From Streptomyces pseudogriseolus (GTDB taxonomy: Bacteria; Actinomycetota; Actinomycetes; Streptomycetales; Streptomycetaceae): a stretch of 38,526 bases of DNA. Below, in pieces: positions 7,261-35,696 of this stretch; position 1 is the first letter of the stretch; each line of letters starts with the position of its first letter. The position numbers and the translations under genes were made by a program. Location of the stretch: NCBI GenBank assembly GCA_002154585.1, contig MUNG01000082.1, positions 1-38,526 on the forward strand, in the 5' to 3' direction. Below the pieces are notes generated by a model. It saw nothing but the letters and a program-made list of their open reading frames with translations. It did not search any database and had not been told where the DNA came from.

Positions 7261-7293
7261 GTGCGCGCCTAACTGCATACCGGCCGTTTGAAT

Positions 7294-7512
7294 CCGCGCG
7301 GGAGAGTCCCCGGCACCGTGTGCCGCCGGGGCGCCGAAGGAGCAAGTCCCTCCCTTGAATCTCTCAGGCACCGTTACCGCGCGGGCGAGGCACATCTGAA
7401 AAGCGGGCCGCCGTCGCAGTGCTCCGGCGGCCCCACCCAAGGTGCAAGTCCTGACCGCCGTCCGCCGGTGGTCATGGCGAACCTCTCAGGTTCCGATGAC
7501 AGATGGGGAGGA
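7294..7512 (+). ncRNA. Tandem glycine riboswitch (two gcvT-type aptamers)
   Basis: Two glycine aptamers in a row, recognised from conserved segments. Aptamer 1: GGGAGAG at 7300, GCGCCGAAGGAGCAAG at 7331-7345 and TGAATCTCTCAGGCACCG at 7356-7373, closing with ATCTGAAAAG near 7394. Aptamer 2: CCACCCAAGGTGCAAG at 7432-7447, CCTCTCAGGTTCCGATGACA near 7482-7501 and AGATGGGG. The linker is short, as in the cooperative tandem class. The end of aptamer 2 lies about 39 bases before the gcvT ATG. Glycine riboswitches before gcv genes have been reported in Streptomyces griseus as glycine-activated. No clear Rho-independent terminator with a T-run follows, so the expression platform is not evident. Confidence 0.95.
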
Positions 7513-19314: not shown

Positions 19315-19466
19315 TTGTTTCTCCCCTCGGCGGGTCTGACCGGACCCGGCCCCCCAGCGCGCCTCTCGCGCACACGGCGAATGGTAACCACAGGCCAGGA
19401 GCCTGGGAGGCGGAGGTTGTGTCACCGTTCCGTTCCAAGTTCAACGGTCCGGCCGAGGGGGTTCGG

Positions 19467-20880: not shown

Positions 20881-23133
20881 GTGTCCAGCGCAGCCGAGCA
20901 GGAGGCGGTGGCCGGAGAGCGGGCCACCGGGGACGGGCGCCCGGCCGTCGTCGTGAACGGCGCGCGGCCGGCGCCGCCCGTGCCCACGGTGCCCGTCCGG
21001 CCGGGCCGGCCGACGCCGCTGGGCGCCCGGTTCCGCACCGGCCCGGACGGGGTGGCGGGGACCAACTTCGCGCTCTGGGCGGGCGGAGCGGAGGGCGTGG
21101 AGCTGTGCCTGTTCGACGAGCACGGCCGGGAGAGCCGGGCCCGGCTGACCGAGCTGACGCACGGCATCTGGCACGGCTTCGTGCCGGGGGTGATGCCGGG
21201 GCAGCGGTACGGCTACCGGGTGCACGGCCGCTGGGACCCGTGGACCGGCGGGCGCTGGAACCCGGCGAAGCTGCTGCTCGACCCGTACGCCCGGGCCGTG
21301 GACGGCGACTTCGTGCTGCCGCCCGAGGTGTACGGGCACGTCCGGGACTGGCCGGAGCAGCATGTCGCGGACACCGTGCGGGACGACCGGGACTCGGCGC
21401 CGTACGTGCCGAAGGGGGTGGTCGTCCATGACGACGACGACTGGGCGGACGACCGGCGGCCGAAGACGCCGTGGTCCGACTCGGTCATCTACGAGCTGCA
21501 CGTACGCGGCTTCACCCGGCGGCACCCGGACATCCCGGAGGAGCTGCGCGGCACCTACGCGGGACTCGCGCATCCGGCGGCGATCGAGCACCTGGTGCGC
21601 CTCGGCGTCACGGCGGTCGAACTGCTGCCGGTGCACCAGTTCGCGCACGAGGACCATCTGCTGCGCCGGGGCCTGCGCAACTACTGGGGCTACAACTCCA
21701 TCGGCTACTTCGCCCCGCACGCCGGCTACGCGGCCTCCGGGACGGCCGGGCAGCAGGTCGGCGAGTTCAAGCGGATGGTGCGCGCGCTGCACGCGGCCGG
21801 CATCGAGGTGATCCTCGACGTGGTCTACAACCACACGGCGGAGGCGGGCGAACTGGGCCCGACGCTCTCCCTGAAGGGCATCGACAACCGCGGCTACTAC
21901 CGCCTCCAGCCCGACGCCCGCCGCTACGCCGACTACACCGGCTGCGGCAACACCCTGCACGTGGTGCAGCCGCACGTGCTGCGACTGATCACCGACTCGC
22001 TGCGCTACTGGGTGACCGAGATGGGCGTCGACGGCTTCCGCTTCGATCTCGCGGCGGCGCTGGCCCGCTCCATGCACGACGTCGACATGCTCTCCCCGTT
22101 CCTCGCGGTGATCGCGCAGGACCCGGTGCTGCGCCGGGTGAAGCTGATCGCCGAGCCGTGGGACGTCGGCTCGGGCGGCTACCAGGTGGGCGCCTTCCCA
22201 CCCCTGTGGACGGAGTGGAACGACCGCTACCGGGACGCCGTACGGGACTTCTGGCGCCACGCGCTGCCGGACGTACGGGAGATGGGCTACCGGCTGTCCG
22301 GCTCCAGCGACCTGTACGCCTGGGGCGGCCGGCGGCCGTACGCCTCGGTCAACTTCGTCACTGCGCACGACGGTCTCACCCTGCGCGACCTCGTGTCGTA
22401 CGACCGCAAGCACAACGAGGCCAACGGGGAGGGCAACCGCGACGGCACGGACGACAACCGGTCCTGGAACTGCGGCGCGGAGGGCGACACCGACGACCCG
22501 GACGTCCGCGCCCTGCGACGGCGGCAGCTGCGGAACCTGCTGACCACGCTGCTGCTGTCGACGGGCGTGCCGATGCTGGTCGCGGGCGACGAGATGGGCC
22601 GCACCCAGCGCGGCAACAACAACGCGTACTGCCAGGACAACGAGACCGGCTGGGTGGACTGGAGCCTGCGGGACGACCCGGAGTGGCGACCGCTGCTGGA
22701 GCTGACCTCACGGCTGGTCGCGCTGCGCCACCGGCACCCGGTGCTGCGCCGCCGCTCCTTCTTCTCCGGCCGCGCGCACTCCGCGGACGGTCTGCGGGAC
22801 CTTGCCTGGTTCACCCCGCACGGCCGGGAGATGACCGAGGGCGACTGGTACGCACCGGCCGCGACCCTCGGCATGTACCTCTCCGGACGGGACATCCCGG
22901 GCCGCGACGAGCAGGGCGCGCCGGTCCTCGACGACAGCTTCCTGGCGGTTCTGCACGCGGGCGCGGACCCGGTGGACTTCGTCCTCCCGGGCCCGCCGTG
23001 GGCGGAACGGTACGAGGTGGTCGTGGACACGGCGCGGGAGGAACAGGACGGTGCGCCCGGCGTGGTGCACGGGGCGGGGGCGCCCGTCACCCTGACGGGC
23101 CGGTCGGTGCTGCTGCTGCGGGTGCTGCCCTGA
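20881..23133 (+). CDS. glgX: Glycogen debranching enzyme
   Basis: 750-aa GH13 enzyme hydrolysing alpha-1,6 branch points of limit dextrins left by glycogen phosphorylase. Start is GTG 20881 with GGGAGG upstream. An N-terminal Ala/Pro-rich tail of about 45 residues precedes the CBM48 domain (ARFRTGPDGVAGTNFALWAGGAEGVELCLFD). Catalytic machinery is GFRFDLAAALAR (nucleophile D389), LIAEPWDVG (acid/base E425) and NFVTAHDGLTLRDLVSY (D497). DVVYNHTAEAG and the GlgX-typical DNRSWNCGAEG and NNNAYCQDNETGWVDW are present. It acts with glgP, encoded at the other end of the window, although the genes are not in one operon. Confidence 0.96.
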   Translation: MSSAAEQEAVAGERATGDGRPAVVVNGARPAPPVPTVPVRPGRPTPLGARFRTGPDGVAGTNFALWAGGAEGVELCLFDEHGRESRARLTELTHGIWHGFVPGVMPGQRYGYRVHGRWDPWTGGRWNPAKLLLDPYARAVDGDFVLPPEVYGHVRDWPEQHVADTVRDDRDSAPYVPKGVVVHDDDDWADDRRPKTPWSDSVIYELHVRGFTRRHPDIPEELRGTYAGLAHPAAIEHLVRLGVTAVELLPVHQFAHEDHLLRRGLRNYWGYNSIGYFAPHAGYAASGTAGQQVGEFKRMVRALHAAGIEVILDVVYNHTAEAGELGPTLSLKGIDNRGYYRLQPDARRYADYTGCGNTLHVVQPHVLRLITDSLRYWVTEMGVDGFRFDLAAALARSMHDVDMLSPFLAVIAQDPVLRRVKLIAEPWDVGSGGYQVGAFPPLWTEWNDRYRDAVRDFWRHALPDVREMGYRLSGSSDLYAWGGRRPYASVNFVTAHDGLTLRDLVSYDRKHNEANGEGNRDGTDDNRSWNCGAEGDTDDPDVRALRRRQLRNLLTTLLLSTGVPMLVAGDEMGRTQRGNNNAYCQDNETGWVDWSLRDDPEWRPLLELTSRLVALRHRHPVLRRRSFFSGRAHSADGLRDLAWFTPHGREMTEGDWYAPAATLGMYLSGRDIPGRDEQGAPVLDDSFLAVLHAGADPVDFVLPGPPWAERYEVVVDTAREEQDGAPGVVHGAGAPVTLTGRSVLLLRVLP

Positions 23134-23190
23134 CGCCCGGCAACACAGGTCGTAGGACCCGCGACCGAGGCGGACCGGGCCGGAATTCGG

Positions 23191-23219
23191 TGGGCAGCGT
23201 CAGTGGCGAACCGTACTCT
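23191..23219 (+). promoter_or_regulatory. Candidate leaderless promoter of the exporter operon
   Basis: -35 TGGGCA (23191-23196), 17-base spacer, -10 TACTCT (23214-23219), then 8 bases to the ATG at 23228. No Shine-Dalgarno sequence precedes that ATG, so a leaderless mRNA fits. The -35 matches the consensus at four positions. Confidence 0.4.
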
Positions 23220-23227
23220 CACTGCTG

Positions 23228-25015
23228 ATGCCCACTACACCTTCTCCGCGGGAGCCCCGCTCCACCGTGCGGACGCTGCTGCGGCTGTGGCCGTACGTGC
23301 GTCCCGTGCGGGCGCGCCTGTTCTCCGCCGCGTTCATCGCCGTCCTGGCGTCCTGCATCGGGCTGGTCATCCCGCTCGTCCTGAAGTGGATGGTCGACGG
23401 CCCGATCGCCGACCGGGACCCGGCGGGGGTGTGGCTCGGCGCGCTGTACCTGCTGCTGCTCGGGCTCGCGGAGGCGCTGCTGTTCGGGTTCCGGCGGTGG
23501 CTGGTGGCGCGGCCGCTGTCGCACGTCGAGGCGGAGATGCGGGCCGGTCTGTACCGGCACCTCCAGCGGCTGCCGATCGCCTTCCACGACCGCTGGGCCT
23601 CGGGCCAGCTGCTGTCCCGGGCCACCGGGGACCTGGCGCTGCTGCGCATGTTCTTCGCGTTCCCGCTGACCTTCCTGCTGGTCAACGGGGTGACGATCCT
23701 GGTCGGCGTGATCATCATGCTGGTGCAGGACTGGGCGCTGGGGCTGGTCATCCTGGTGCCGGCGGCGCCCGTGCTGATCACCTGCGTGGTGTTCGAGAAG
23801 CGGTACTCGCTGGCCGCGCGACAGGCGCAGGACCAGGTGGGCGACCTGACGACGGTGGTCGAGGAGAGCGTGCTCGGCATCCGGATCATCAAGGGGTTCG
23901 GCCGGCACCGCAGCCAGGCGCGGGCGTTCCGGGAGCTGTCGGGGAAGCTGCGGGGCACGGAGCTGCACAAGGCGCGGCTGCTGGCGACGATCCTCGGCAT
24001 CATCGTGACGCTGCCCGAGTTCGCCATCGGGGCGGCGCTGGTGCTGGGCGCGGTGCAGGTGGCGGACGGCACGCTGTCGGCGGGCACGCTGGTGGCGTTC
24101 CTGTCCACGACACTGGCGCTGCGCTGGCCGGTGGACTCCATCGGCTTCCTGCTGGCGATGAGCCAGGAGGCGGCGACGGCCACGGAACGCTACTTCGAGG
24201 TGATGGACGCGGAGCCGGAGTCGGGGACGACGGCATCCGCCGGGAGGCGCGACGCCCGACGGGAGGGCGGACTGCGGTTCGAGAACGTCACCTTCCGCTA
24301 CCCCGACGCGCCACAAGACTCACCCCCCGTCCTGAACCGCATCGACCTCCACATCCGCCCCGGCGAATCCCTCGCCCTGGTCGGCGCGACCGGTAGCGGC
24401 AAGACCACCCTCACCGCCCTCGTCCCCCGCCTCCACGAGGTCACCGAGGGCCGCATCACCCTCGACGGCCGGGACATCACCGAGATGTCAAGGGAAGAAC
24501 TGCGCTCCCGCGTCGCCGTCGCCTTCGAGGAACCCACCCTGTTCTCCGCGACCGTCGGTGAGAACGTCCTGATGGGCGGCGGCACCGGCGAGGAGGACCT
24601 GGAGCGCGCCCTGGCCGTCGCCCAGGCCGACTTCGCCCACGCCCTGCCCCAGGGCACCGCCACCCAGGTCGGCGAGCAGGGGCTGAGCCTCTCCGGCGGG
24701 CAGCGGCAGCGGCTCGCCCTGGCCCGCGCGGTCGTCGGGCGCCCCGACTTCCTGGTGCTGGACGACCCGCTGTCCGCGCTGGACGTGCACACCGAGGCCG
24801 CGGTCGAGGCCGCTCTGCGCCGGGTGCTCGCCGACACCACGGCGCTGATCGTGGCGCACCGCCCGTCCACCGTGCTGCTCGCCGACCGGGTGGCGCTGCT
24901 GTCCGGCGGGCGGATCACGGCGGTCGGCACCCATCACGAACTGCTGCGCGGCAATGCCGAGTACGCCCACCTCATGTCGGGCGACCCGGCGGAGGAACTG
25001 GAGGAGCAGCGATGA
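23228..25015 (+). CDS. ABC exporter half-transporter 1 (permease-ATPase fusion), degenerate catalytic Glu
   Basis: 595-aa type IV ABC exporter subunit: six-helix transmembrane domain (about 20-320) fused to an NBD (about 350-595). Walker A is GATGSGKT (386-393, K392) and the signature is LSGGQ (488-492). Two catalytic positions are altered: the Q-loop residue is Glu434 in place of Gln (FEEPTLF), and the Walker B motif FLVLDDPLSALD has Asp513 where the catalytic Glu is expected. The H-loop His544 is kept. In a heterodimer these changes would make this subunit's own ATP site weak, while its LSGGQ serves the partner. It overlaps the next gene by 4 bp. No Shine-Dalgarno site precedes ATG 23228. 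Substrate unknown. Confidence 0.95.
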   Translation: MPTTPSPREPRSTVRTLLRLWPYVRPVRARLFSAAFIAVLASCIGLVIPLVLKWMVDGPIADRDPAGVWLGALYLLLLGLAEALLFGFRRWLVARPLSHVEAEMRAGLYRHLQRLPIAFHDRWASGQLLSRATGDLALLRMFFAFPLTFLLVNGVTILVGVIIMLVQDWALGLVILVPAAPVLITCVVFEKRYSLAARQAQDQVGDLTTVVEESVLGIRIIKGFGRHRSQARAFRELSGKLRGTELHKARLLATILGIIVTLPEFAIGAALVLGAVQVADGTLSAGTLVAFLSTTLALRWPVDSIGFLLAMSQEAATATERYFEVMDAEPESGTTASAGRRDARREGGLRFENVTFRYPDAPQDSPPVLNRIDLHIRPGESLALVGATGSGKTTLTALVPRLHEVTEGRITLDGRDITEMSREELRSRVAVAFEEPTLFSATVGENVLMGGGTGEEDLERALAVAQADFAHALPQGTATQVGEQGLSLSGGQRQRLALARAVVGRPDFLVLDDPLSALDVHTEAAVEAALRRVLADTTALIVAHRPSTVLLADRVALLSGGRITAVGTHHELLRGNAEYAHLMSGDPAEELEEQR

Positions 25016-26865
25016 CGGCGGCCACGACCGCACCGGTCCGCGACGAGGACGACGACCAGGCGACGCACAAGGACGGCGACCCCTTCGACCGGGACGTGCT
25101 GCCCACTCCCCCGGGCGCCACCGGCGCGCTGCTGCGCTCCCTGCTCGCGCCGATGCGCGGCCGGGTCGCCGTGGCCGCGCTGTTGCTGCTGCTCCAGCAG
25201 GCCGCCGTGCAGGCGGGCCCGCTGCTGGTGGCGTACGCGATCGACCGGGCGGTGCCCGCCTTCCGCGGGGACGACCACGGGCCGCTGATCGCGGTGGCGG
25301 TGGGCTATCTGCTGTGCGCGTCGGCGGCCGGGGCGCTGCAGTACGCGTTCATCACCGTCTCCGCGCGGGTCAGCCAGGACGTGCTGCTGGACCTGCGCGG
25401 GCGGATCTTCCGGCACGCGCAGGCGCTCAGCGTGGACTTCCACGAGCGCTACACCTCCGGGCGGCTGATCTCCCGCTCCACCACCGACGTCGAGTCGCTG
25501 CGGGAGCTGCTGGAGGAGGGCCTTCAGGAACTGGTGATGACGATCCTGTCGGCCGTGTACATCTCGGTGCTGCTGCTCTGGCTGGACCTGGGTCTGGGCG
25601 CGGTGGCGGTGGCGTCGTTCGTGCCGCTGTACCTGCTGGTGCGGTCCTACCAGCGGCGGGCGCAGCGGGTGTACCGGAGGCGGTCGACGGCGATCGCCGC
25701 GGTGATCGTGAAGTTCGTCGAGACGATGAACGGCATCCGCCCGGTGCGCGCCTTCCGCCGCGAGCAGGCCAACGACGCCGACTTCGCGGTGCTGAACCGG
25801 CGGCACGAGAAGACCAACGGCGACGCGCTGCTGGAGATGGCGCGCTACGTCGTGGGCTCCCGGGTGACCGCCAACACCACGGTCGCGCTGATCGTGCTGT
25901 GGGGCGCCTACCGGGTGGCCGGTCAGACGCTGGCGCTGGGTGTGCTGGCGGCGGCCGTGCTGTATCTGCGGCGGCTGTACGACCCGATCGACCGGCTCGG
26001 CATGTTCCTCAACTCCTACCAGTCGGCGGCGGCCTCGCTGGAGAAGATCGCCGGGCTGCTGGCGCAGACCCCGTCCGTGCCCGAGCCGACGTCCCCCCGC
26101 GAGCTCCCGGAGCGGCGCCCCGGACTCCCCGGCCGGGAGGTCGTCTTCGACGACGTGCGGTTCGCGTACCGCACCGGCGGCGAGGTGCTGCCCCGCTTCG
26201 GCCTCACCCTGCCGGCCGGGCAGACGGTCGCGGTCGTCGGCTCCACGGGCGCGGGCAAGTCGACGCTGGCTAAGCTGCTCGCCCGGTTCTACGACCCCTC
26301 CGACGGGCGCGTGCTGCTCGACGGCGTGGACCTGCGCGACCTGACGGGGCGGGATCTGCGGCGCGAGGTGGTGATGGTGACCCAGGAGGCGTTCCTGTTC
26401 TCCGGGACGGTCGCCGAGAACATCGCGATCGGCCGTCCGGAGGCCGGCCGGGAGGAGATCGAGCGGGCCGCCAAGGAGATCGGCGCGCACGACTTCATCG
26501 CCGCGCTGCCCGACGGCTACGACACCGACGTCCGCAAGCGCGGCGGCCGGATCTCGGCCGGTCAGCGCCAGTTGGTCGCCTTCGCGCGGGCGCTGCTCGC
26601 GGACCCCGCGGTGCTCATCCTCGACGAGGCGACCAGCTCGCTGGACATCCCCGGCGAGCGGGCGGTGCAGCGGGCCATGGCGACGGTGCTGAAGGGCCGT
26701 ACGGCGGTGGTGATCGCGCACCGGCTGTCGACCGTGGAGATCGCCGACCGGGTGCTGGTGATGGAGCACGGGCGGATCGTCGAGGACGGCACCCCGGACG
26801 AACTCATCGGTGGCACGGGCCGGTTCGCCGACCTGCACCGTGCCTGGCGGGACAGCCTGGCCTGA
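25012..26865 (+). CDS. ABC exporter half-transporter 2, partner of half-transporter 1
   Basis: 617-aa permease-ATPase fusion, translationally coupled to its partner by an ATGA overlap. It has a longer acidic cytoplasmic N-terminus (about residues 1-50) before the six-helix domain. The NBD is complete: Walker A GSTGAGKS (410-417), Q-loop Gln458, Walker B ending in Glu539 ([12 protein letters not shown]) and His570. The signature is ISAGQ (514-518), lacking one consensus Gly. Paired with half-transporter 1, the site made of its own Walker motifs and the partner's LSGGQ would be the hydrolytic one. The heterodimer likely exports a lipid, drug or peptide; nothing local identifies which. Confidence 0.95.
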
Positions 26866-26917
26866 CGACCGCCGTCGCGGGTCCGCGGGGTCCGCGCCCA
26901 GGGGGAGGGGAACCGAC

Positions 26918-28639
26918 GTGATCGACGCCTACGAGGACCCCGGCACGCCCGACGGGCGTGGCGGGGCCCGTTATCTGTGGTGGCTGGTGCGCCGGCAGCC
27001 GGGGCGCTGCGTGGCGGGGGCGGTGTACGGCAGCGTGTGGATGGTGCTGCTGGCGTCCACGCCGTACCTGATGTCCCGGGCGGTGGACGACGGGCTCCAG
27101 ACCGGCGACATGGCGGCGCTGGCCGACTGGGCCGCCGCCCTGGTCGGGGTGACCGCGTTCACCGCCTGGGTGAGCATGATGCGGCACCGCACCATGACGA
27201 AGGTCCGGATGGACGCCAACTTCCGCACGGTGAAGGTGGTCGTCGGGCACACGGTGCGGCTGGGCGCGGCGCTGGAGCGGCGGGCGGCGGCCGGGGAGGT
27301 CGTGACGATCGGCGTGGGCGACGTGCAGGTGATCGCGCAGGCGCTCACCGCCGTCGGGCCGGGGATCGGTGCGGTCGTGGCGTACGCGGCGGTGGCGGGG
27401 CTGCTGCTGGAGGTGTCGCCGCTGCTGGCCGCGGTGGTGCTGCTGGGGGTGCCGGTGATCGCGCTGGTGGTGGGGCCGCTGGCCGGGCGGCTCCAGGGCG
27501 CGGAGACGGAGTACCGGGAGCGGCAGGGTGTGCTGACCGCGCGGATCGGGGATCTCGCGGGCGGGCTGCGGGTGCTGAGCGGGCTCGGCGGCAAGGGGCT
27601 GGTCGCGGACGCGTTCCGCCGGGACTCGGGGCGGCTGCGGGAACAGGGCTACCGGGTGGGGGCGGTGACGAGCTGGATGCAGGCGCTGTCCGCGGGCCTG
27701 CCGACGCTGTTCCTCGCGGTGGTGACGTGGATCGCGGCGCGGCAGGCCGCGCAGGGGGACATCAGCATCGGCGAACTGGTCTCGGTGTACGGGTACGTGA
27801 CCATGCTGGTGTGGCCGGTGATGTTCCTGATCGAGTCCGGCTACTACCTCAGCCGGGGCGTGGTCGCGGCCGGCCGGGTGGCGGCCCTGCTGCGGATCCA
27901 GCCGCCGCCGGACGCGGCCACCGCCGACCCGCCGGCGGAGCCGTCCGCGCTGGAGGACCCGGAGTCCGGGGTGCGGGTGCTGCCGGGGCGGCTGACCGCG
28001 CTGGTGTGCGCCCGGCCGGCGGACGCGGCGGCCGTGGTGGACCGGCTGGGCCGGTACGCGCCGTCGGAGGTCACGTGGGGCGGGGTCCGGCTGGACGAGA
28101 TGGCGCTCGCCCGGGTGCGGGAGCGGATCCTGGTCGCCGATCCGGAGGCCGCGCTGTTCGCGGGCCCGCTGCGCGAGGTGGTCGCGGGCGGGTGCGAGGC
28201 GTCCGACGAGGAGGTGCTGGGCGCCCTGCACGCGGCGGCCGCCGACGACGTGGTGCGCGGGCTGCCCGGGGGACTGGACTCGGTGGTGTCGGCGCAGGGC
28301 CGCAGCCTGTCCGGCGGTCAGCGGCAGCGGGTGCGGCTGGCGCGGGCGCTGCTGGCCGGCCCGGAGGTGCTGCTGGCGGTGGAGCCGACCTCGGCGCTGG
28401 ACGCGCACACCGAGGCCCTGGTCGCCGGCCGGCTGCGCGCCGCGCGCGAGGGCCGTACGACGGTGCTGGCCACCACCTCGCCGCTGGTGCTGGACCGGGC
28501 CGACCGGGTGCTGTTCCTGGTGGACGGCAAGGTGGCGGCGAGCGGCGCCCACCGCGATCTGCTGGACGGCGAACCGGAGTACCGGCGCCTGGTGGCGAGG
28601 GACGCCGAGCAGGGCGTCGCCGAGGAGGTGGCGGGATGA
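26918..28639 (+). CDS. ABC exporter half-transporter 3 with dead ATP-binding motifs but intact LSGGQ
   Basis: 573 aa from GTG 26918 (GGGGGAGGGG upstream), 52 bp after the previous stop. The six-helix transmembrane domain covers about residues 20-320. In the NBD, the Walker A segment is VCARPADAA (363-371): the glycines and the P-loop Lys are missing. No Gln sits at the Q-loop (LVADPEAALF). Walker B is LLAVEPTSALD, with Val488 replacing the Mg-binding Asp while Glu489 remains. The H-loop position is Thr519 (LATTSPLV). Only the signature LSGGQ (464-468) and the D-loop SALD are preserved. This subunit should not bind ATP normally but can still complete its partner's site. It ends in an ATGA overlap with gene 4. 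Confidence 0.95.
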   Translation: MIDAYEDPGTPDGRGGARYLWWLVRRQPGRCVAGAVYGSVWMVLLASTPYLMSRAVDDGLQTGDMAALADWAAALVGVTAFTAWVSMMRHRTMTKVRMDANFRTVKVVVGHTVRLGAALERRAAAGEVVTIGVGDVQVIAQALTAVGPGIGAVVAYAAVAGLLLEVSPLLAAVVLLGVPVIALVVGPLAGRLQGAETEYRERQGVLTARIGDLAGGLRVLSGLGGKGLVADAFRRDSGRLREQGYRVGAVTSWMQALSAGLPTLFLAVVTWIAARQAAQGDISIGELVSVYGYVTMLVWPVMFLIESGYYLSRGVVAAGRVAALLRIQPPPDAATADPPAEPSALEDPESGVRVLPGRLTALVCARPADAAAVVDRLGRYAPSEVTWGGVRLDEMALARVRERILVADPEAALFAGPLREVVAGGCEASDEEVLGALHAAAADDVVRGLPGGLDSVVSAQGRSLSGGQRQRVRLARALLAGPEVLLAVEPTSALDAHTEALVAGRLRAAREGRTTVLATTSPLVLDRADRVLFLVDGKVAASGAHRDLLDGEPEYRRLVARDAEQGVAEEVAG

Positions 28640-30402
28640 ACGGGGAGCGGCTGCCGGTGGCGGAACCGGCCGATGTGCGCCGGGCGGCGGGCGAGCTGGT
28701 GCGGGCGGACGGCCGGGCCTTCGCGGGCGTGCTGGCGCTGAACGGGGCGGCGGCGCTCGCCGGTCTGGCCGGGCCGTGGCTGCTCGGGCGGATCGTCGAC
28801 GAGGTGCGGGCGGGCGGCGGGACCGCGGTGGTGGACCGGCTGGCCCCGGTCATCCTGGCGTGCGCGGTGGCGCAGCTGCTGCTGTCCCGCTGGGCCCGCT
28901 ACGTGGGGCACCGGTTCGGGGAGCGGACGCTGGCGCGGGTGCGGGAGCGGTTCGTGGACCGGGTGCTGGCGCTGCCGTCCGCGGTGGTGGAGCGTGCGGG
29001 CACCGGCGATCTGACGACGCGGGGCACGGCGGACGTGACGTCCGTGGGCACGACGCTGCGGGACGCCGGGCCGTCGCTGCTGGTCAACCTGGTGCAGTCG
29101 CTGTTCGTGGGGGCCGCGATCCTGGTCGTGGACCCGCTGCTGGGCGCGCTGGGGCTGCTGTGCCTGACGCCGATCCGGCTGGTGCTGCGCTGGTATCTGC
29201 GGCGGGCCCGGGACGCGTATCTGGCCGAGGGCGCGGCCAGTTCGGACGTGGCGGAGGTGGTCGCGTCGACGGCGGCCGGCGCCCGGACGGTGGAGGCGCT
29301 CCGGATGGAGGAGCGGCGGATCCGGGCGAGCCGGGAGGCGCTGGAGACGTCCCGCCGCACCCGTATGCGCACGCTGTTCCTGCGCTCGGTGTTCTTCCCG
29401 GTGGTCGAGCTGTCGTACATCGTGCCGGTGGCCGGGGTGCTGCTGTGCGGCGGCTGGCTGCACGAGCGGGGCGCGGTGAGCCTGGGCGCGGTGGTGGCGG
29501 CCTCGCTGTATCTGCTCCAGCTGAGCGGTCCGCTGGACGAGGTGCTGATGCGGATGGAGCAGCTCCAGTCGAGCGGCGCGTCGTTCGCGCGGGTGGAGGG
29601 TCTGGCCCGGGCGCCGCGCGCGGCCGGGCGCGGCGACGCCCCGGACCCGGCGGACGACCGGATCGACGTGACCGGCGTGCGGTACGCGTACGACGGGGGC
29701 GGCGAGGTGCTGCGCGGGGTGGATCTGACGGTGACGCCGGGCGAGCGGCTGGCGGTGGTGGGGCCGTCGGGCGCGGGCAAGACCACGCTGAGCCGGCTGC
29801 TGGCGGGGGTGGACGCGCCGGCCGCCGGGAGCGTGACCGTGGGCGGGGTGCCGGTGGCGTCGCTGGACCCGGAGCGGCTGCGCCGGCAGGTGGTGCTGGT
29901 GACGCAGGAGCACCATGTCTTCCTGGGGTCGGTCCGGGACAATCTGCGGATCGCCGCGCCGGACGCCGGGGACGAGGAGCTGTGGGCGGCGCTCGCGGTG
30001 GTGGGCGCGGACGGCTGGGTGCGGGAGCTGCCGCGCGGTCTGGACACCGAGCTGGGCGAGGGCGGTCACCCCACCGACGGCCCGCGGGCGCAGCAACTGG
30101 CGCTGGCGCGCGTGGTGCTGGCCGATCCGCACACGCTGGTCCTCGACGAGGCGACCGCGCTGCTCGACCCGGCGACCGCCCGGCACACCGAGCGCGCGCT
30201 GGCCGCCGTGCTGGAGGGCCGTACGGTCGTCGCCGTCGCGCACCGGCTGCACACCGCGCACGACGCGGACCGGGTGGCGGTGATGGAGGACGGCCGGCTC
30301 TCCGAACTGGGCACGCACGACGCGCTGGTGGCGGCGGACGGGGTGTACGCGGCGCTGTGGCGGTCCTGGCACGGGGACGGGCCGGCCGGCGGCACGCCGT
30401 AG
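28636..30402 (+). CDS. ABC exporter half-transporter 4 with intact ATP-binding motifs but destroyed signature
   Basis: 588 aa, coupled to half-transporter 3 by ATGA at 28636-28639. A six-helix transmembrane domain (about 30-320) leads to the NBD. Walker A GPSGAGKT (376-383, K382), Gln424, Walker B LVLDEATALLD (Glu505) and His536 are all present. The signature is PTDGPRAQQ (479-487), where LSGGQRQ is expected: Leu, Ser, one Gly and Gln are changed. The loss is exactly complementary to half-transporter 3, so the pair can form one complete ATP site and one empty site. Immediately followed by a 9-bp-stem hairpin, which ends the four-gene operon. Confidence 0.95.
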   Translation: MNGERLPVAEPADVRRAAGELVRADGRAFAGVLALNGAAALAGLAGPWLLGRIVDEVRAGGGTAVVDRLAPVILACAVAQLLLSRWARYVGHRFGERTLARVRERFVDRVLALPSAVVERAGTGDLTTRGTADVTSVGTTLRDAGPSLLVNLVQSLFVGAAILVVDPLLGALGLLCLTPIRLVLRWYLRRARDAYLAEGAASSDVAEVVASTAAGARTVEALRMEERRIRASREALETSRRTRMRTLFLRSVFFPVVELSYIVPVAGVLLCGGWLHERGAVSLGAVVAASLYLLQLSGPLDEVLMRMEQLQSSGASFARVEGLARAPRAAGRGDAPDPADDRIDVTGVRYAYDGGGEVLRGVDLTVTPGERLAVVGPSGAGKTTLSRLLAGVDAPAAGSVTVGGVPVASLDPERLRRQVVLVTQEHHVFLGSVRDNLRIAAPDAGDEELWAALAVVGADGWVRELPRGLDTELGEGGHPTDGPRAQQLALARVVLADPHTLVLDEATALLDPATARHTERALAAVLEGRTVVAVAHRLHTAHDADRVAVMEDGRLSELGTHDALVAADGVYAALWRSWHGDGPAGGTP

Positions 30403-30413
30403 GAACCGGTGTT

Positions 30414-30440
30414 CCGGGTCCGTCAAGGCGGCGGACCCGG
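30414..30440 (+). terminator. Terminator hairpin of the exporter operon
   Basis: CCGGGTCCG (30414-30422), 9-base loop, CGGACCCGG (30432-30440), starting 12 bases after the last exporter stop. No T-run. Confidence 0.6.
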
Positions 30441-30713
30441 CCGCCCGGAGCACGTCCCGCCCGCCGTCGTCCGATTGCCGGACACCCCCTCCCGCACACC
30501 GGACGGAATCCGGCCAACTTCTTGACGCGCTCCTGACAGAAAGCGCACTCCCCTGCCACTCTTCCCACGGCCGCTTCACAGCAACCCCACAGCCTCGGCT
30601 GCCCGTTGTGCGGCGGTCACTGCTCGAAGCACTTCCGTTCTGCCCGGCCGGCTGACCCGCCGGCCGGTCTCCCCAGGCCGCGCAACCCCGCGGCCCCGCA
30701 GAAGGAGTCAGCG
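30441..30713 (+). promoter_or_regulatory. Upstream region of the first metalloprotease, with conserved promoter
   Basis: No gene seen. It holds a promoter: box CGGCCAAC (30511-30518), 11 bases, CTCCTGACA (30530-30538; -35 CTGACA 30533-30538), 18 bases, CACTCTTCCC (30557-30566; -10 CACTCT). The same three blocks with the same spacings occur upstream of the second protease. A leader of about 150 bases would precede the TTG at 30714. Confidence 0.7.
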
Positions 30714-32759
30714 TTGAGAAGCAGGACGTCCCACAGACGCACCCCCCGCACCACGCAGCGCCGCGTCGCCGCCGTCGCCCTCGCCGGCGTGGCCGCGCTG
30801 ATCGCCACAGCCGTGCAGTCCGGCGCCGCCACCGCCGCCCCCGGCACGGCGCCGCGGACCGCGGGCTCCGCCGCGTCCGCCTCGGAGTCGGTCACGCTCA
30901 CCCCCGCCCAGCGTGCCGCGCTGATGCGCCAGGCGGACTCCGTCAAGGCCGAGACCGCCAAGGACCTCGGCCTCGGCGCGAAGGAGAAGCTCGTCGTCCG
31001 CGACGTCCTCAAGGACCGCGACGGCACCGTGCACGTCCGTTACGAGCGCACCTACGACGGGCTGCCCGTGCTCGGCGGCGACCTGGTCGTCCAGGGCGAC
31101 ACGGCCGGCGAGGCCGACAAGGTCGTGAAGGCCACCCGCGCCGCGGTGAAGCCCGCCACCACCGCCGCGACGGTGCCGGCCGCCAAGGCCGAGCAGCAGG
31201 CCCTGTCCGCCGCGAAGGCCGAGAAGGCCGCGGGCGCCGACGTCGACCGGGCCCCGCGCAAGGTGATCTGGGCGGCGGACGGCACGCCGGTCGTCGCGTA
31301 CGAGACGGTCGTCGGCGGCCTCCAGCACGACGGCACCCCGCAGGAGCTGCACGTCGTCACCGACGCCACCACCGGGGAGAAGCTGTACGAGTGGCAGGCC
31401 GTGCAGAACGGCACCGGCCACACCGTCTACAGCGGCACCGTCGACCTGACGACCACCCAGTCCGGGTCGTCGTACAACCTCACCGACGGGGCGCGCGGCG
31501 GGCACAGGACGTACAACCTCAACCGCGGCACCTCCGGCACCGGGACGCTGTTCTCCGGCTCCGACGACGTCTGGGGCAACGGCAGCCCCTCCAACGCCGA
31601 GTCGGCCGGCGCGGACGCCCACTACGGGGCGGCGCTGACCTGGGACTACTACAAGAACGTGCACGGCCGCAGCGGCATCCGCGGGGACGGCGTCGGCGCC
31701 TACTCCCGGGTCCACTACGGCAACAACTACGTCAACGCCTTCTGGTCGGACAGCTGCTTCTGCATGACGTACGGCGACGGCTCCGGCAACGCCAACCCGC
31801 TCACGTCCATCGACGTGGCCGCGCACGAGATGTCGCACGGCCTCACCTCGGCCACCGCGGGCCTGGTCTACAGCGGCGAGTCCGGCGGCCTCAACGAGGC
31901 GACCAGCGACATCTTCGGCTCGACCGTCGAGTTCTACGCGAACAACTCCTCCGACGTCGGTGACTACCTCATCGGCGAGGAGATCGACATCAACGGCGAC
32001 GGCACCCCGCTGCGCTACATGGACAAGCCGAGCAAGGACGGCCGGTCCAAGGACTCCTGGTACTCCGGCATCGGCTCGATCGACGTGCACTACTCGTCGG
32101 GCGTGGCGAACCACTTCTTCTACCTGCTGAGCGAGGGCAGCGGCACCAAGACCATCAACGGGGTCACCTACGACTCCCCCACCTCCGACGGCCTGCCGGT
32201 CACCGGCATCGGCCGCGCCAAGGCGGAGAAGATCTGGTTCCGCGCGCTCACCACGAAGTTCACCTCCACCACCAACTACGCGGCCGCCCGCACCGGCACC
32301 CTGGCGGCGACCGGTGAGCTGTACGGCACGGACGGCGCCGAGTACAAGGCGGTGCAGGACGCCTGGGCGGCCGTCAACGTCGGCGCCCGCTCCGGCGGTC
32401 CCGGGGGCGGCGGCACCACCTTCGAGTCCTCCGCCGACGTGGCGATCCCGGACGCCGGCGCCGCGGTGACGTCCCCGATCACCGTCACCGGCCGCACCGG
32501 CAACGCCCCGGCCAACCTCCAGGTCTCGGTGGACATCGTGCACACCTGGAGCGGTGACCTGGTGGTCGACCTGGTGGCCCCGGACGGCACGTCGTACCGG
32601 CTGCGCAACCGCACCGGCGGCTCCGCGGACGACATCAACGAGACGTACACGGTCAACGCGTCGTCGGAGACGGCCAACGGCACCTGGCAGCTGCGGGTGC
32701 AGGACGTGGCCCGTTACGACACCGGCTACATCAACGGCTGGAGCCTGACCTTCCCGTAG
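30714..32759 (+). CDS. Secreted M4 (thermolysin-family) metalloprotease with C-terminal P domain
   Basis: 681-aa prepro-enzyme. I start at TTG 30714 because GAAGGAG lies 5 bases upstream and a signal peptide follows (RRVAAVALAGVAALIATAV, cleavage near ATAAP). An FTP/PepSY-type propeptide of about 180 residues precedes the catalytic domain. Zn ligands are H371 and H375 in HEMSH, with E372 as base, and E395 in GGLNEATSD; the catalytic His is H459 in SIDVHYSSGVANHF. A Cys pair (SCFC, C348 and C350) may form a disulfide. A Gly-rich linker (561-567) leads to a P/Homo-B domain (about 570-681: VDIVHTWSGDLVVDLVAPDG). The paralog downstream lacks that domain. Extracellular protein degradation is the likely role. 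Confidence 0.95.
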   Translation: MRSRTSHRRTPRTTQRRVAAVALAGVAALIATAVQSGAATAAPGTAPRTAGSAASASESVTLTPAQRAALMRQADSVKAETAKDLGLGAKEKLVVRDVLKDRDGTVHVRYERTYDGLPVLGGDLVVQGDTAGEADKVVKATRAAVKPATTAATVPAAKAEQQALSAAKAEKAAGADVDRAPRKVIWAADGTPVVAYETVVGGLQHDGTPQELHVVTDATTGEKLYEWQAVQNGTGHTVYSGTVDLTTTQSGSSYNLTDGARGGHRTYNLNRGTSGTGTLFSGSDDVWGNGSPSNAESAGADAHYGAALTWDYYKNVHGRSGIRGDGVGAYSRVHYGNNYVNAFWSDSCFCMTYGDGSGNANPLTSIDVAAHEMSHGLTSATAGLVYSGESGGLNEATSDIFGSTVEFYANNSSDVGDYLIGEEIDINGDGTPLRYMDKPSKDGRSKDSWYSGIGSIDVHYSSGVANHFFYLLSEGSGTKTINGVTYDSPTSDGLPVTGIGRAKAEKIWFRALTTKFTSTTNYAAARTGTLAATGELYGTDGAEYKAVQDAWAAVNVGARSGGPGGGGTTFESSADVAIPDAGAAVTSPITVTGRTGNAPANLQVSVDIVHTWSGDLVVDLVAPDGTSYRLRNRTGGSADDINETYTVNASSETANGTWQLRVQDVARYDTGYINGWSLTFP

Positions 32760-33031: not shown

Positions 33032-34687
33032 GTGACTCCCCTCTACGCGCGTCGCCGTACCGCCCTGGCCGCCGCCACCGCGGTCGTGGCCGGCGCCCTG
33101 CTCACCACCGGACTGGCCACCGGCACCGCGACCGCCGGCTCCGCCCCCGCCGGCACGCCGGCCCTGGGCGGCGCCCCCGTGCTGCTGTCCGCCGCGGCCC
33201 GCACCTCCCTCATCCAGGAGCAGCAGGCCACGGCCGCGGACACCGCCGAGGCGATAGGCCTCGGCGCCCGCGAGAAGCTGATCGTCAAGGACGTGGTGCG
33301 GGACGTCGACGGCACGGTCCACACCCGCTACGAGCGCACCTACGCCGGACTGCCCGTGCTCGGCGGCGACCTGGTCGTCCACCAGCCGGAGGGCGGCGCC
33401 AGAACCGTCACCAAGGCCGTGCGGACGGCCGTCGCGGTGCCCTCCGTGACGCCGAAGGTCGGCGCGGCCAAGGCCGAGGCGCAGGCGCTCGCCGCCGCCG
33501 CCGCCGGGAAGGCCGACGCGGAGCGCGCCGAGGCCGGCTCCGCGCCCCGCCGGGTGATCTGGGCCGCCGAGGGCACGCCCGTCCTCGCCTACGAGACCGT
33601 CGTCGGCGGCCTCCAGGAGGACGGCACCCCGAACGAGCTGCACGTGATCACCGACGCCACCACCGGCGAGAAGCTGCACGAGTGGCAGGCCGTGCACACC
33701 GGCACCGGCCGGAGCCTGTACTCCGGCACCGTCACCCTCGGCACGTACAAGTCCGGCTCGACGTACCAGCTGTACGACACCGCGCGCGGCGGGCACAAGA
33801 CCTACAACCTGGCGCGCTCCACCTCCGGCACCGGCACCCTGTTCACCGACGCCGACGACACCTGGGGCACCGGCACCGCCTCCAGCTCCTCGAGCGACCA
33901 GACCGCGGCCGTGGACGCCGCCTACGGCGCCCAGATCACCTGGGACTTCTACAAGAACACCTTCGGGCGCAACGGCATCAGGAACGACGGCAAGGCCGCC
34001 TACTCCCGCGTCCACTACGGCAGCAACTACGTCAACGCCTTCTGGCAGGACAGCTGCTTCTGCATGACCTACGGCGACGGCACGGGCAACGTCAACCCGC
34101 TGACCTCGCTGGACGTCGCCGGCCACGAGATGAGCCACGGCGTCACGTCCGTCACCGCAGGCCTGCGCTACAGCGGCGAGTCCGGCGGCCTCAACGAGGC
34201 GACCAGCGACATCTTCGGCACGGGCGCGGAGTTCTACGCGGCCAACTCCGCCGACGCCGGCGACTATCTCATCGGCGAGAAGATCGACATCAACGGTGAC
34301 GGCAGCCCGCTGCGGTACATGGACAAGCCGAGCAAGGACGGCGCGTCCCGGGACTACTGGTCCTCCAACCTCGGCTCGGTCGACGTGCACTACTCGTCGG
34401 GCCCGGCCAACCACTTCTTCTTCCTGCTCAGCGAGGGCAGCGGCGCCAGGACCGTCAACGGCGTGAGCTACAACTCGCCGACGTACGACGGCTCCACGGT
34501 CACCGGCATCGGCCGCGCGAAGGCGCTGCAGATCTGGTACAAGGCGCTGACCACGTACTTCACCTCGACGACCAACTACAAGGCGGCCCGCACCGGCACG
34601 CTGAGCGCGGCGTCGGCGCTGTACGGGTCGGGCAGCGCGGAGTACAAGGCGGTCGAGGCGGCCTGGAAGGCGGTGAACGTCAGCTGA
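33032..34687 (+). CDS. Secreted M4 (thermolysin-family) metalloprotease without P domain
   Basis: 551-aa paralog of the preceding protease. Start is GTG 33032 behind GAGGAG. A signal peptide (RRRTALAAATAVVAGALLTTGL) is followed by a propeptide with EKLIVKDVVRDVDGTVHTRYERTYAGLPVLGGDLVVH, nearly the same as in the paralog. Zn site: H365, E366, H369 (HEMSH) and E389. Cys pair SCFC at C342/C344 is shared. The protein ends at AAWKAVNVS, exactly where the paralog continues into its linker and P domain. It has its own copy of the conserved promoter, so the two enzymes are probably co-regulated although separated by a terminator. Confidence 0.95.
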   Translation: MTPLYARRRTALAAATAVVAGALLTTGLATGTATAGSAPAGTPALGGAPVLLSAAARTSLIQEQQATAADTAEAIGLGAREKLIVKDVVRDVDGTVHTRYERTYAGLPVLGGDLVVHQPEGGARTVTKAVRTAVAVPSVTPKVGAAKAEAQALAAAAAGKADAERAEAGSAPRRVIWAAEGTPVLAYETVVGGLQEDGTPNELHVITDATTGEKLHEWQAVHTGTGRSLYSGTVTLGTYKSGSTYQLYDTARGGHKTYNLARSTSGTGTLFTDADDTWGTGTASSSSSDQTAAVDAAYGAQITWDFYKNTFGRNGIRNDGKAAYSRVHYGSNYVNAFWQDSCFCMTYGDGTGNVNPLTSLDVAGHEMSHGVTSVTAGLRYSGESGGLNEATSDIFGTGAEFYAANSADAGDYLIGEKIDINGDGSPLRYMDKPSKDGASRDYWSSNLGSVDVHYSSGPANHFFFLLSEGSGARTVNGVSYNSPTYDGSTVTGIGRAKALQIWYKALTTYFTSTTNYKAARTGTLSAASALYGSGSAEYKAVEAAWKAVNVS

Positions 34688-34739: not shown

Positions 34740-35261
34740 ATGTCTTCGGCGGACTTCACCTACGACCACGTCGGCGCGAGCCGGGATCCCGACTACTGCC
34801 CTCCGGGTTTCCACCACCTGAGGGAGCGCACCCGGCTCGGCGAGGGCGAGAAGGTGTTCCGCCAGGCCGCGGACGCGCTGTTCGGCTGGGAGATGCACCG
34901 GGAGATGGGCGTCGGCGTCGACGCGTCCGCGGAGCGGGCGGCGTCCGACGTCGACGTGACCGTCACCCTGGCGGGGGTGGTGCGGGCGCCCTGCCGGGTG
35001 GTGTGGGCGGAGGAGGAGTACCGCCGGGCCGGCTGGGCGTACGGGACGCTGGCGGGGCATCCGGAGAGCGGGGAGGAGGCGTTCGTCGTCCACCGGACGG
35101 GGGACGGGACGGTGTGGCTGACCGTCTCTGCCTTCAGCAGGCCGGCGCGCTGGTACGCGCGGGCGGGTGGGCCGGCCACGCGGACCTTGCAGCACGCTTA
35201 CGCGCGCCGCTGCGGCAGGGTGCTGCGGCGGCTCGCGACCCGGGGGGTCACGGACGCCTGA
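34740..35261 (+). CDS. DUF1990/UPF0548-like protein
   Basis: 173-aa protein of the DUF1990-type fold as far as can be judged by eye. Start is ATG 34740. Recognisable segments are FTYDHVGASRDPDYCPPGFHHLRERTRLGEGEKVFRQAADALFGWEMHREMGV, in which YDHVGAT-like start and LG-EGE---AADAL are family features, then VVWAEEEYRRAGWAYGTLAGHPESGEEAFVVH, where AYGTLxGHPExGEExF is the conserved core. The C-terminus is WLTVSAFSRPARWYARAGGP followed by a basic helix. No signal peptide. Cellular role is unknown. Probably leaderless (see TAGGCT element). Convergent with glgP across a repeat array. Confidence 0.85.
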   Translation: MSSADFTYDHVGASRDPDYCPPGFHHLRERTRLGEGEKVFRQAADALFGWEMHREMGVGVDASAERAASDVDVTVTLAGVVRAPCRVVWAEEEYRRAGWAYGTLAGHPESGEEAFVVHRTGDGTVWLTVSAFSRPARWYARAGGPATRTLQHAYARRCGRVLRRLATRGVTDA

Positions 35262-35696
35262 CGGGTGCGCGGGGGTGCCGGGGGCTGTTGGACGCCGGGT
35301 GCGGGCCACACGTGGCGGGTCGCGCAGTTCCCCGCGCCCCTGAAGGGGCGCTGCCCCTGCCGTCTGCGGGCAGTCGTGCCGCTAGGGGCGGCACGGGTGG
35401 GCGCAGGCGGCACCCCTCCAGCGGGCCCGCGCCCCACCCCGTACGGCCACCGGGGTGCCGGGAACTGTTGCACGCCGGGTGCGGGCCGCACGGGGCGGAT
35501 CGCGCAGTTCCCCGCGCCCCACCCCGTACGGCCACCGGGGTGCCGGGAACTGTTGCACGCCGGGTGCAGGCCGCACGGGGCTGGTCGCGCAGTTCCCCGC
35601 GCCCCTGGAGGCCACCGGGGTGCCGGGAACTGTTGCACGCCGGGTGCAGGCCGCACGGGGCTGGTCGCGCCGTTCCTCGCGCCCCTGGAGGGGCGC
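35262..35696. repeat. Intergenic repeat array: four 69-bp units plus a separate palindromic element
   Basis: No gene. Four related 69-bp units lie at 35272-35340, 35452-35520, 35537-35605 and 35617-35685. Units 2-4 differ at only a few positions; unit 1 is more diverged. Units 2 and 3 begin with GGGAACTG and end with CAGTTCCC, so each can fold on itself. Units 1 and 4 are followed by a GCGCCCC/GGGGCGC hairpin (35334-35351 and 35679-35696), the latter ending one base before the glgP stop. A different element with GTGCCGC-N5-GCGGCAC (35376-35394) sits between units 1 and 2. From memory both sequence types recur in Streptomyces intergenic DNA. Confidence 0.85.
35679..35696 (-). terminator. Hairpin directly after glgP
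   Basis: GCGCCCC (35679-35685), TGGA, GGGGCGC (35690-35696). It begins immediately after the glgP stop codon on the minus strand. It is the last part of the repeat array and probably terminates glgP. Confidence 0.6.

What the first reader, a model, noticed from the sequence alone, without database searches (positions are those of the whole stretch)
26918..30402. ABC exporter pair with fully complementary loss of ATP-site motifs
Seen: half-transporter 3 has lost the P-loop Lys, Q-loop Gln, Walker B Asp and H-loop His but keeps LSGGQ. Half-transporter 4 keeps all of those and has lost LSGGQ (now PTDGPRAQQ). Known: in ABC dimers each ATP site uses Walker motifs from one NBD and the signature from the other, and heterodimers such as TM287/288, BmrCD and TAP have one degenerate site. 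Inference: this pair has one intact site and one that likely cannot bind ATP at all, more extreme than the usual degenerate site, and must work with a single ATP per cycle.
Basis: partly seen in the sequence, partly recalled or inferred. Interest (0 to 1): 0.72.

Follow-up and report, generated by a model that had tools for sequence, protein, structure and literature searches.

The report
Pump with one ATP site erased
A widespread family of two-part export pumps in Streptomyces and related bacteria has kept one of its two ATP sites whole and lost the key parts of the other, each half carrying the losses that complement its partner, so these pumps may run on a single ATP.

Summary
Half 3 (26918-28639) lacks the A-loop aromatic, P-loop, Q-loop Gln, Walker B Asp and H-loop His but keeps LSGGQ and the D-loop Asp; half 4 (28636-30402) is the mirror image. 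Among 127 half-3-like (T3) and 126 half-4-like (T4) proteins from the phylum, no T3 has a Walker A Lys, A-loop aromatic or H-loop His and all keep SGG; all T4 keep A-loop Tyr, Walker A and Q-loop, and none of 125 readable ones has SGG. 126 of 127 T3 have a T4 in the same fetched region. Each type is one clade in a tree from the membrane domain only. Ten named pairs agree. Walker B Asp and Q-loop Gln vary among T3, so those losses came separately. AlphaFold2 keeps the half-3 NBD fold but gives a two-residue turn where the phosphate loop should be. dN/dS speaks against decay. Best reading: an obligate heterodimeric exporter with one working ATP site and one stripped of its nucleotide contacts. 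That the second site is empty is inferred, not measured. Substrate unknown; some relatives lie beside siderophore or NRPS genes.

The parts
26918..28639 (+). Half-transporter 3 (P0001, 'T3' type): TMD + NBD without nucleotide-binding parts, with intact signature and D-loop
28636..30402 (+). Half-transporter 4 (P0002, 'T4' type): TMD + NBD with all Walker-side parts, without signature
27950..28051 (+). Half 3, residues 345-378: where A-loop, P-loop and the following helix should be; A-loop strand shortened, P-loop predicted as a 2-residue turn (A365-R366) before a helix starting at P367
28127..28159 (+). Half 3 Q-loop region ILVADPEAALF (Gln lost)
28304..28330 (+). Half 3 intact signature SLSGGQRQR (belongs to the working site)
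28367..28402 (+). Half 3 Walker B/D-loop VLLAVEPTSALD: Asp lost, Glu kept, D-loop Asp kept
28457..28489 (+). Half 3 H-loop region TTVLATTSPLV: His replaced; SP conserved in 127 of 127 T3
29677..29790 (+). Half 4 A-loop Tyr352 to Walker A GPSGAGKTTL, intact
29890..29922 (+). Half 4 Q-loop VVLVTQEHHVF, intact
30067..30096 (+). Half 4 lost signature HPTDGPRAQQ
30133..30168 (+). Half 4 Walker B and D-loop TLVLDEATALLD, intact
30226..30252 (+). Half 4 H-loop VVAVAHRLH, intact
23228..25015 (+). Half-transporter 1 (P0003) of the neighbouring, conventional asymmetric pair (Walker A intact, Walker B LDD, Q-loop FEE)
25012..26865 (+). Half-transporter 2 (P0004) of that pair (Walker A intact, ISAGQ signature)

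Best explanation
Halves 3 and 4 form an obligate heterodimeric ABC exporter of the MsbA/TM287-288 type. The one working ATP site is made of the A-loop, Walker A, Q-loop, Walker B and H-loop of half 4 and the signature and D-loop of half 3. The second site is made of parts that have lost their main nucleotide contacts: half 3 has no A-loop aromatic, no phosphate loop and no H-loop His, and half 4 has no signature. A homodimer of either half would have no complete site, so the heterodimer is obligatory. Most likely cycle: one ATP binds and closes the working site; the other side of the NBD dimer is held by protein contacts (a standing hinge), not by an occluded ATP; hydrolysis in half 4 resets the pump. 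Shown: the motif states, their fixation in the clade, gene adjacency, one clade for each half type, purifying selection. Predicted: loss of the loop. Inferred: heterodimer formation, an empty second site, one ATP per cycle, and export as the function. Substrate unknown.
Against: Nucleotide occupancy was not measured. Pdr5, among the most degenerate cases in the review passages, still binds ATP there. Walker B Asp (25/127) and a Gln in the Q-loop stretch (26/127) survive in some T3, and the Glu in 93/127, so the site is not uniformly stripped. One T3 (L168) has no T4 within the 11.7 kb fetched. The exact P-loop deletion depends on the alignment. No heterodimer model could be made.
Confidence: 0.76

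Rival explanations
1. Pdr5-like: the second site still holds a nucleotide by unorthodox contacts, which glues the NBDs as proposed for CFTR, TAP and MRP1. The pair is then only a more degenerate version of the usual asymmetric exporter.
For: Pdr5 has Lys to Cys, Glu to Asn, His to Tyr and LNVEQ (PMC7756269, passage), yet ATP is seen in its degenerate site, helped by a linker (PMC8421411, passages). The catalytic Glu is kept in 93 of 127 T3 and Walker B Asp in 25 of 127.
Against: Here the A-loop strand is shortened and the phosphate loop has no glycine pattern left and is predicted as a short turn, so the loss goes beyond single substitutions.
Confidence: 0.14
2. The two halves are not partners: half 3 pairs with another half-transporter (for example 1 or 2), or acts as a regulator.
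For: Two other halves lie just upstream; all four were found in 66 of 80 named Streptomyces loci.
Against: In the first set halves 1 and 2 were seen beside the pair in 12 of 102 sources (flanks of about 5 kb, some contigs cut), while T3 and T4 stay together; the losses complement each other between T3 and T4; T3 and T4 identities covary.
Confidence: 0.04
3. Half 3 is a decaying gene.
For: It has lost catalytic motifs; some matches elsewhere are partial, two of them with a stop inside (G079, G009).
Against: 127 of 127 T3 keep SGG and the D-loop Asp; dN/dS 0.067 over signature to D-loop and 0.33 over the NBD; found in 39 of 103 genera sampled in the class.
Confidence: 0.01
4. The complex is ATP-gated but not a pump (channel, sensor or signalling complex), the single site serving as a switch.
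For: One ATP site with a standing interface on the other side recalls a gate; transport is untested.
Against: Half 4 keeps the catalytic Glu (124/125, one ambiguous) and H-loop His (124/124), and some relatives lie beside siderophore or NRPS genes, where an exporter is expected.
Confidence: 0.05

Closest known systems
Heterodimeric exporters with a degenerate site: TM287/288, BmrCD, TmrAB/TAP, PatAB, MsRv1273c/72c
   Same: Two half-transporters of TMD-NBD order; one consensus and one degenerate composite site, split as Walker side of one half and signature of the other. TmrAB, BmrCD and MsRv1273c/72c are among the listed structural matches for both halves, TM287/288 for half 3.
   Different: Their losses are mild (PatAB: Glu to Asp, His to Gln, SGGQ to SAGQ; PMC9541285 passage) and MsRv1273c/72c binds ATP in its degenerate site through Walker A (PMC12038006 passage; that the others keep Walker A there is recalled). 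Here A-loop, P-loop and signature are gone, while the catalytic Glu is mostly kept.
Pdr5 and other PDR full transporters of fungi
   Same: All motifs of the degenerate site changed, opposite signature lost, canonical site intact (PMC7756269 passage)
   Different: One chain of reverse domain order; Lys to Cys substitution; ATP still seen in the site (PMC8421411 passages)
Halves 1 and 2 of the same window (conventional asymmetric pair)
   Same: Tandem neighbours, same domain order
   Different: Both keep Walker A; changes are Q-loop FEE and Walker B LDD in half 1 and ISAGQ in half 2
Exporter pair beside a LANC_like protein in the same genome (contig C366; RamA/RamB-like by recall)
   Same: Two adjacent half-transporters, one with a changed Walker B and Q-loop
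   Different: Both keep the P-loop (L180); not T3 or T4 by score
TCDB 3.A.1.119 Drug/Siderophore Exporter-3
   Same: Name, and six S. coelicolor proteins in a table (PMC3924187, passage), would fit three such pairs
   Different: Whether those six are T3/T4 proteins was not tested

Membership tests
MsbA/ABCB-type ABC exporter half-transporter | ABC_membrane domain followed by ABC_tran domain | tested here: met
Heterodimeric exporter with one degenerate site | One composite site complete, the other incomplete | tested here: met
Heterodimeric exporter with one degenerate site | Catalytic Glu next to Walker B replaced in the degenerate site | tested here: not met
   Half 3 of the window keeps Glu; 93 of 127 T3 do
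Heterodimeric exporter with one degenerate site | Walker A kept in the degenerate site | tested here: not met
   0 of 127 T3 have it
Heterodimeric exporter with one degenerate site | Degenerate site holds ATP | not testable with these tools
   Needs binding data or a structure
Heterodimeric exporter with one degenerate site | The two halves assemble with each other | not testable with these tools
   Only adjacency and covariation; single-chain models only
Pdr5-type PDR transporter | Full-length chain, NBD before TMD | tested here: not met
   Two chains, TMD before NBD
A named NCBIfam family | Score over the family's cut-off | tested here: not met
   The 25 best of 153 (P0001) and of 175 (P0002) families are shown and all lie below their cut-offs
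TCDB 3.A.1.119 | Homology to its members | not tested
   No member sequence was at hand

The most novel reading that the evidence does not exclude
A clade of one-site ABC exporters: the second composite site was converted, once and long ago, into a nucleotide-free structural hinge, with SP in place of the H-loop, a helix starting almost directly after the strand in place of the P-loop, and TPAQ-like or DGxxAQ sequences in place of LSGGQ. Such a pump would work without the occluded ATP 'glue' that current models give the degenerate site, so it would show that the glue is dispensable.
Probability: 0.65. Interest if true: 0.75.

Novelty: new variant of a known kind. Interest (0 to 1): 0.62.

Why it matters
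What the non-hydrolysing site does in asymmetric ABC transporters (CFTR, TAP, MRP1, many drug pumps) is an open question; the review passages read here treat ATP held there as the glue between the NBDs (PMC7756269). A natural family in which that site has no phosphate loop, no A-loop aromatic and no signature offers a direct test: it should bind one ATP per dimer and still transport. It is common in Streptomyces and found in 39 of 103 sampled genera of the class, in part beside siderophore and natural-product genes, and I saw no solved structure or described function for it in the searches named below.

Tried and rejected
Decay of half 3: rejected by conservation and dN/dS. Pairing of half 3 with halves 1 or 2: made unlikely by adjacency outside the four-gene loci. 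Kinship with RamAB: the smaller of two LANC_like matches in this genome lies beside an exporter pair that keeps both P-loops. A hidden P-loop elsewhere in half 3: none in 127. A signature elsewhere in half 4: 19 of 126 T4 hold SGG followed by Q, E, R or H somewhere; the column aligned with the signature holds no SGG or SAG in 125, and most of the 19 lie around residues 482-501 of the trimmed sequences, by eye in the X-loop before it.

Search bias: the first 100 regions came from searches with half 3, so I searched again with half 4. Of 21 regions fetched from that search (L143-L162, L182), 17 hold a T4 and all 17 have a T3 partner with the same losses; four (L154-L157) are ordinary pairs by score and motif. 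T3 and T4 are recognised by likeness to known T3 and T4, so a very distant member could be missed. Rows moved: three weak T4-like exporters of the window's own genome were put among the 'other' exporters before the count (129 to 126; cut-offs 250 bits for T3 and 350 for T4, applied to the second set only). Two of the ten named plasmid T3 (L266, 234 bits; L269, 163 bits) lie under that cut-off and were taken because they adjoin a T4. In one search the locus with two pairs (L054) had one T3 matched to the wrong T4.

Neighbours against the siderophore lead: of 30 neighbouring ORFs sent to Pfam, 8 were siderophore- or NRPS-type (one of these two in L144), the rest other or unknown functions, among them helicases, an aldehyde dehydrogenase, peptidases and a sugar-type binding protein.

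Not conclusive: promoter and terminator scan of 22800-30900 found nothing. SCO5451 is listed among WblC-activated ABC transporters (PMC7157823, passage) and among genes raised by chromosome relaxation (PMC6637917, passage); that it is one of these four halves is my recollection of gene order. Models are single chains from shallow alignments (mean pLDDT 67 for half 4, 72 for half 3). The P-loop alignment differs by method: MAFFT gives no gap; hhalign gives a 3-residue deletion in it against other exporters but not against T4. Paper searches gave no title or abstract start describing such a family; most hits were seen as listings only, and the library holds open-licence papers only.
Full report
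WHAT IS THERE. The window is contig C755 of a 7.26 Mb, 773-contig assembly. The nearest named relatives found for half 3, S. albogriseolus, S. cellulosae, S. althioticus and S. griseoincarnatus, are 91-92% identical, so it is a Streptomyces or very near one. Four half-transporter genes follow each other on the + strand: halves 1 and 2 (23228-25015, 25012-26865) and halves 3 and 4 (26918-28639, 28636-30402). All four hold ABC_membrane and ABC_tran domains. Halves 1 and 2 are a conventional asymmetric pair with both Walker A motifs intact.

THE OBSERVATION. Half 3 lacks the P-loop, Q-loop Gln, Walker B Asp and H-loop His and keeps LSGGQ; half 4 keeps all of these and lacks the signature. Two additions: half 3 keeps the Glu beside Walker B, and it has lost the A-loop strand with its aromatic residue. 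hhalign of NBD profiles puts a 12-residue deletion at the A-loop, against other exporters and against T4 alike; inside the P-loop it puts a 3-residue deletion against other exporters but not against T4, and MAFFT shows no gap there. The loss of the loop's sequence is certain, its exact shortening is not.

SURVEY. Half 3 was searched in whole genomes: matches in 88 of 101 same-genus genomes at E <= 1e-60, 102 of 119 drawn from the order and 96 of 246 from the class, 39 of 103 genera, both at E <= 1e-55, and 16 of 198 from the phylum at E <= 1e-45. These draws overlap, and the weakest matches of the phylum search include ordinary exporters (L167, L169, L170). Half 4 was searched on its own in 148 genomes of the class: 71 match at E <= 1e-85. 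I fetched 100 regions from the first searches; 21 from the half-4 search, 10 from the phylum search and nine stretches of the window's own genome as controls; and one own-genome region with a paralogous pair. Not all matches were fetched.

RESULT OF THE SURVEY. 127 ORFs are T3 (half-3-like), 126 T4 (half-4-like) and 57 other exporter halves. Parts of the lost site: A-loop aromatic 0/127, Walker A 0/127, Gln at the exact Q-loop position 1/127 (anywhere in the 9-residue stretch 26/127), Walker B Asp 25/127, Glu 93/127, H-loop His 0/127 in T3; SGG or SAG 0/125 and D-loop Asp 96/125 in T4. Parts of the working site: A-loop Tyr 126/126, Walker A 126/126, Q 126/126, Asp 125/125, Glu 124/125 (the exception is an ambiguous letter), His 124/124 in T4; SGG 127/127 and D-loop Asp 127/127 in T3. 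Other exporters: Walker A 57/57, SGG or SAG 54/55, A-loop aromatic 55/57, H-loop His 52/55; 24 of the 57 are halves 1 and 2 or their orthologs. The D-loop result matters because the D-loop serves the opposite site (established for ABC dimers): it is untouched in T3, where it serves the working site, and lost in 29 of 125 T4, where it serves the dead one. Of 127 T3, 126 have a T4 in the same fetched region; the order is T3 then T4 in 124, reversed in L153, and called reversed in L054 only because that locus holds two pairs; L168 has a T3 alone.

NAMED PAIRS. From 7 plasmid records matched by half 3 and 63 matched by half 4 I read 12 regions. Ten hold a T3-T4 pair with the same complementary loss (L263-L269, L272-L274: Streptomyces, Arthrobacter, Pseudonocardia, Tsukamurella, Rhodococcus, Embleya; reversed order in L272); two are ordinary exporters by score and motif (L270, L271). 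Among close orthologs, half 3 has no P-loop pattern in 81 of 81 and SGGQ in 81 of 81; half 4 has GPSGAGK(S/T), LDEAT and AHR in 76 of 76 and a signature in none (window included; other motifs were not scored there).

ORIGIN. In a tree from the membrane domain only (60 T3, 61 T4, 24 others) T3 is one clade (SH-aLRT 99) and T4 one clade (98) (quick method, long branches among the others). So each kind of loss is best read as having one origin, and no intermediate was met. Walker B Asp needs at least 6 changes on a T3 tree without the motif columns, the T4 D-loop 2. The paralogous pair in the same genome (C323, L009; 41% and 48% identical) has the same pattern but still has Walker B Asp and a Gln in the Q-loop stretch. 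Loss of A-loop, Walker A and H-loop in T3 and of the signature in T4 is the fixed core; Walker B Asp and the Q-loop vary apart from it.

SELECTION. Median dN/dS of the window against orthologs (simple counting method): half 3, TMD 0.34, NBD 0.33, replaced A-loop/P-loop stretch 0.30 (80 orthologs), signature to D-loop 0.067 (77); half 4, TMD 0.33, NBD 0.20, A-loop to Walker A 0.077 (75), lost signature 0.26 (74). The parts of the working site are held hardest. The replaced parts are constrained about as much as the rest of half 3. They are not random: SP stands in place of the H-loop in 127 of 127 T3 (in 8 of the 10 named plasmid pairs, read), and a Pro at the start of the new helix in about 78% by weight.

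MECHANISM. Shown: site-wise complementarity, its fixation, and selection. Inferred: neither half can make a complete site with itself, so the pair is obligate; the second site probably binds no nucleotide; the NBDs stay joined there by protein contacts; one ATP is used per cycle. The review PMC7756269 (passages) describes ATP kept in the degenerate site as glue, and MsRv1273c/72c (PMC12038006, passages) and Pdr5 (PMC8421411, passages) hold nucleotide there. If the inference holds, this family does without it.

FUNCTION. Unknown. Neighbours of relatives: L-ornithine monooxygenase and FecCD (L144), FecCD (L132, L165), a periplasmic binding protein of family Peripla_BP_2 (L137, L171), NRPS (L130 tested; L128, L132, L135 and five others by clustering), chorismate-binding plus condensation domain (L150); isochorismate genes (L267, L268), a SidA/IucD/PvdA monooxygenase (L273), dpgABC (L274), a TetR regulator just upstream (L264). 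These neighbours were chosen by hand; 8 of 30 ORFs sent to Pfam were of this kind and 22 were not, so this is a lead, not a rate. For the clade of the window itself no substrate clue was found.

NOVELTY. The NCBIfam families shown (best 25 of each list) all lie below their cut-offs. The best sequence matches among solved structures are general exporters (Ste6, ABCB19, P-glycoproteins; E 4e-51 for half 3, 3e-90 for half 4), so no close relative with a solved structure was seen. The paper searches named in Tried and rejected gave no account of such a family. It is a new variant of a known kind, the asymmetric heterodimeric exporter, at its extreme end.

Noticed in passing
window 7289-7512: Two adjacent glycine riboswitch aptamers (Rfam RF00504, 71 and 36 bits), running into the start of an ORF at 7503 that looks like gcvT (by reading).
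   Followed up: partly
window 35246-35675: Four copies of an 85-nt direct repeat (69-100% identical) between a metallopeptidase-like gene and a glycogen phosphorylase-like gene (by reading).
   Followed up: partly
window 18073-20693, - strand: Two adjacent similar ORFs that look like L,D-transpeptidases (by reading, not tested).
   Followed up: no
window 30606-32759 and 33032-34687: Two tandem thermolysin-like metallopeptidase ORFs; only the first seems to carry an extra C-terminal domain (by reading, not tested).
   Followed up: no
L168: A T3 half with no T4 half within 11.7 kb: it may have a partner elsewhere or be an orphan.
   Followed up: partly
L054: The two kinds of Streptomyces pairs (window type and paralog type) lie in tandem in one locus.
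   Followed up: no
T4 of L127, L128, L130-L137 and others: A T4 subgroup has also lost the D-loop Asp (AEAG or ADAG in place of SLLD); several of these lie beside siderophore genes.
   Followed up: partly
L105:3561-4694 and 14 other loci between L090 and L138: A conserved ORF upstream of the pair in 15 loci; the one copy tested has no Pfam match.
   Followed up: partly
G079:C1:5932511-5933329, G009:C1:6880528-6881178, G064:C1:6070602-6072440: Half-3 matches that are partial with a stop inside (G079, G009) or split in two (G064): broken copies, or split alignments.
   Followed up: no
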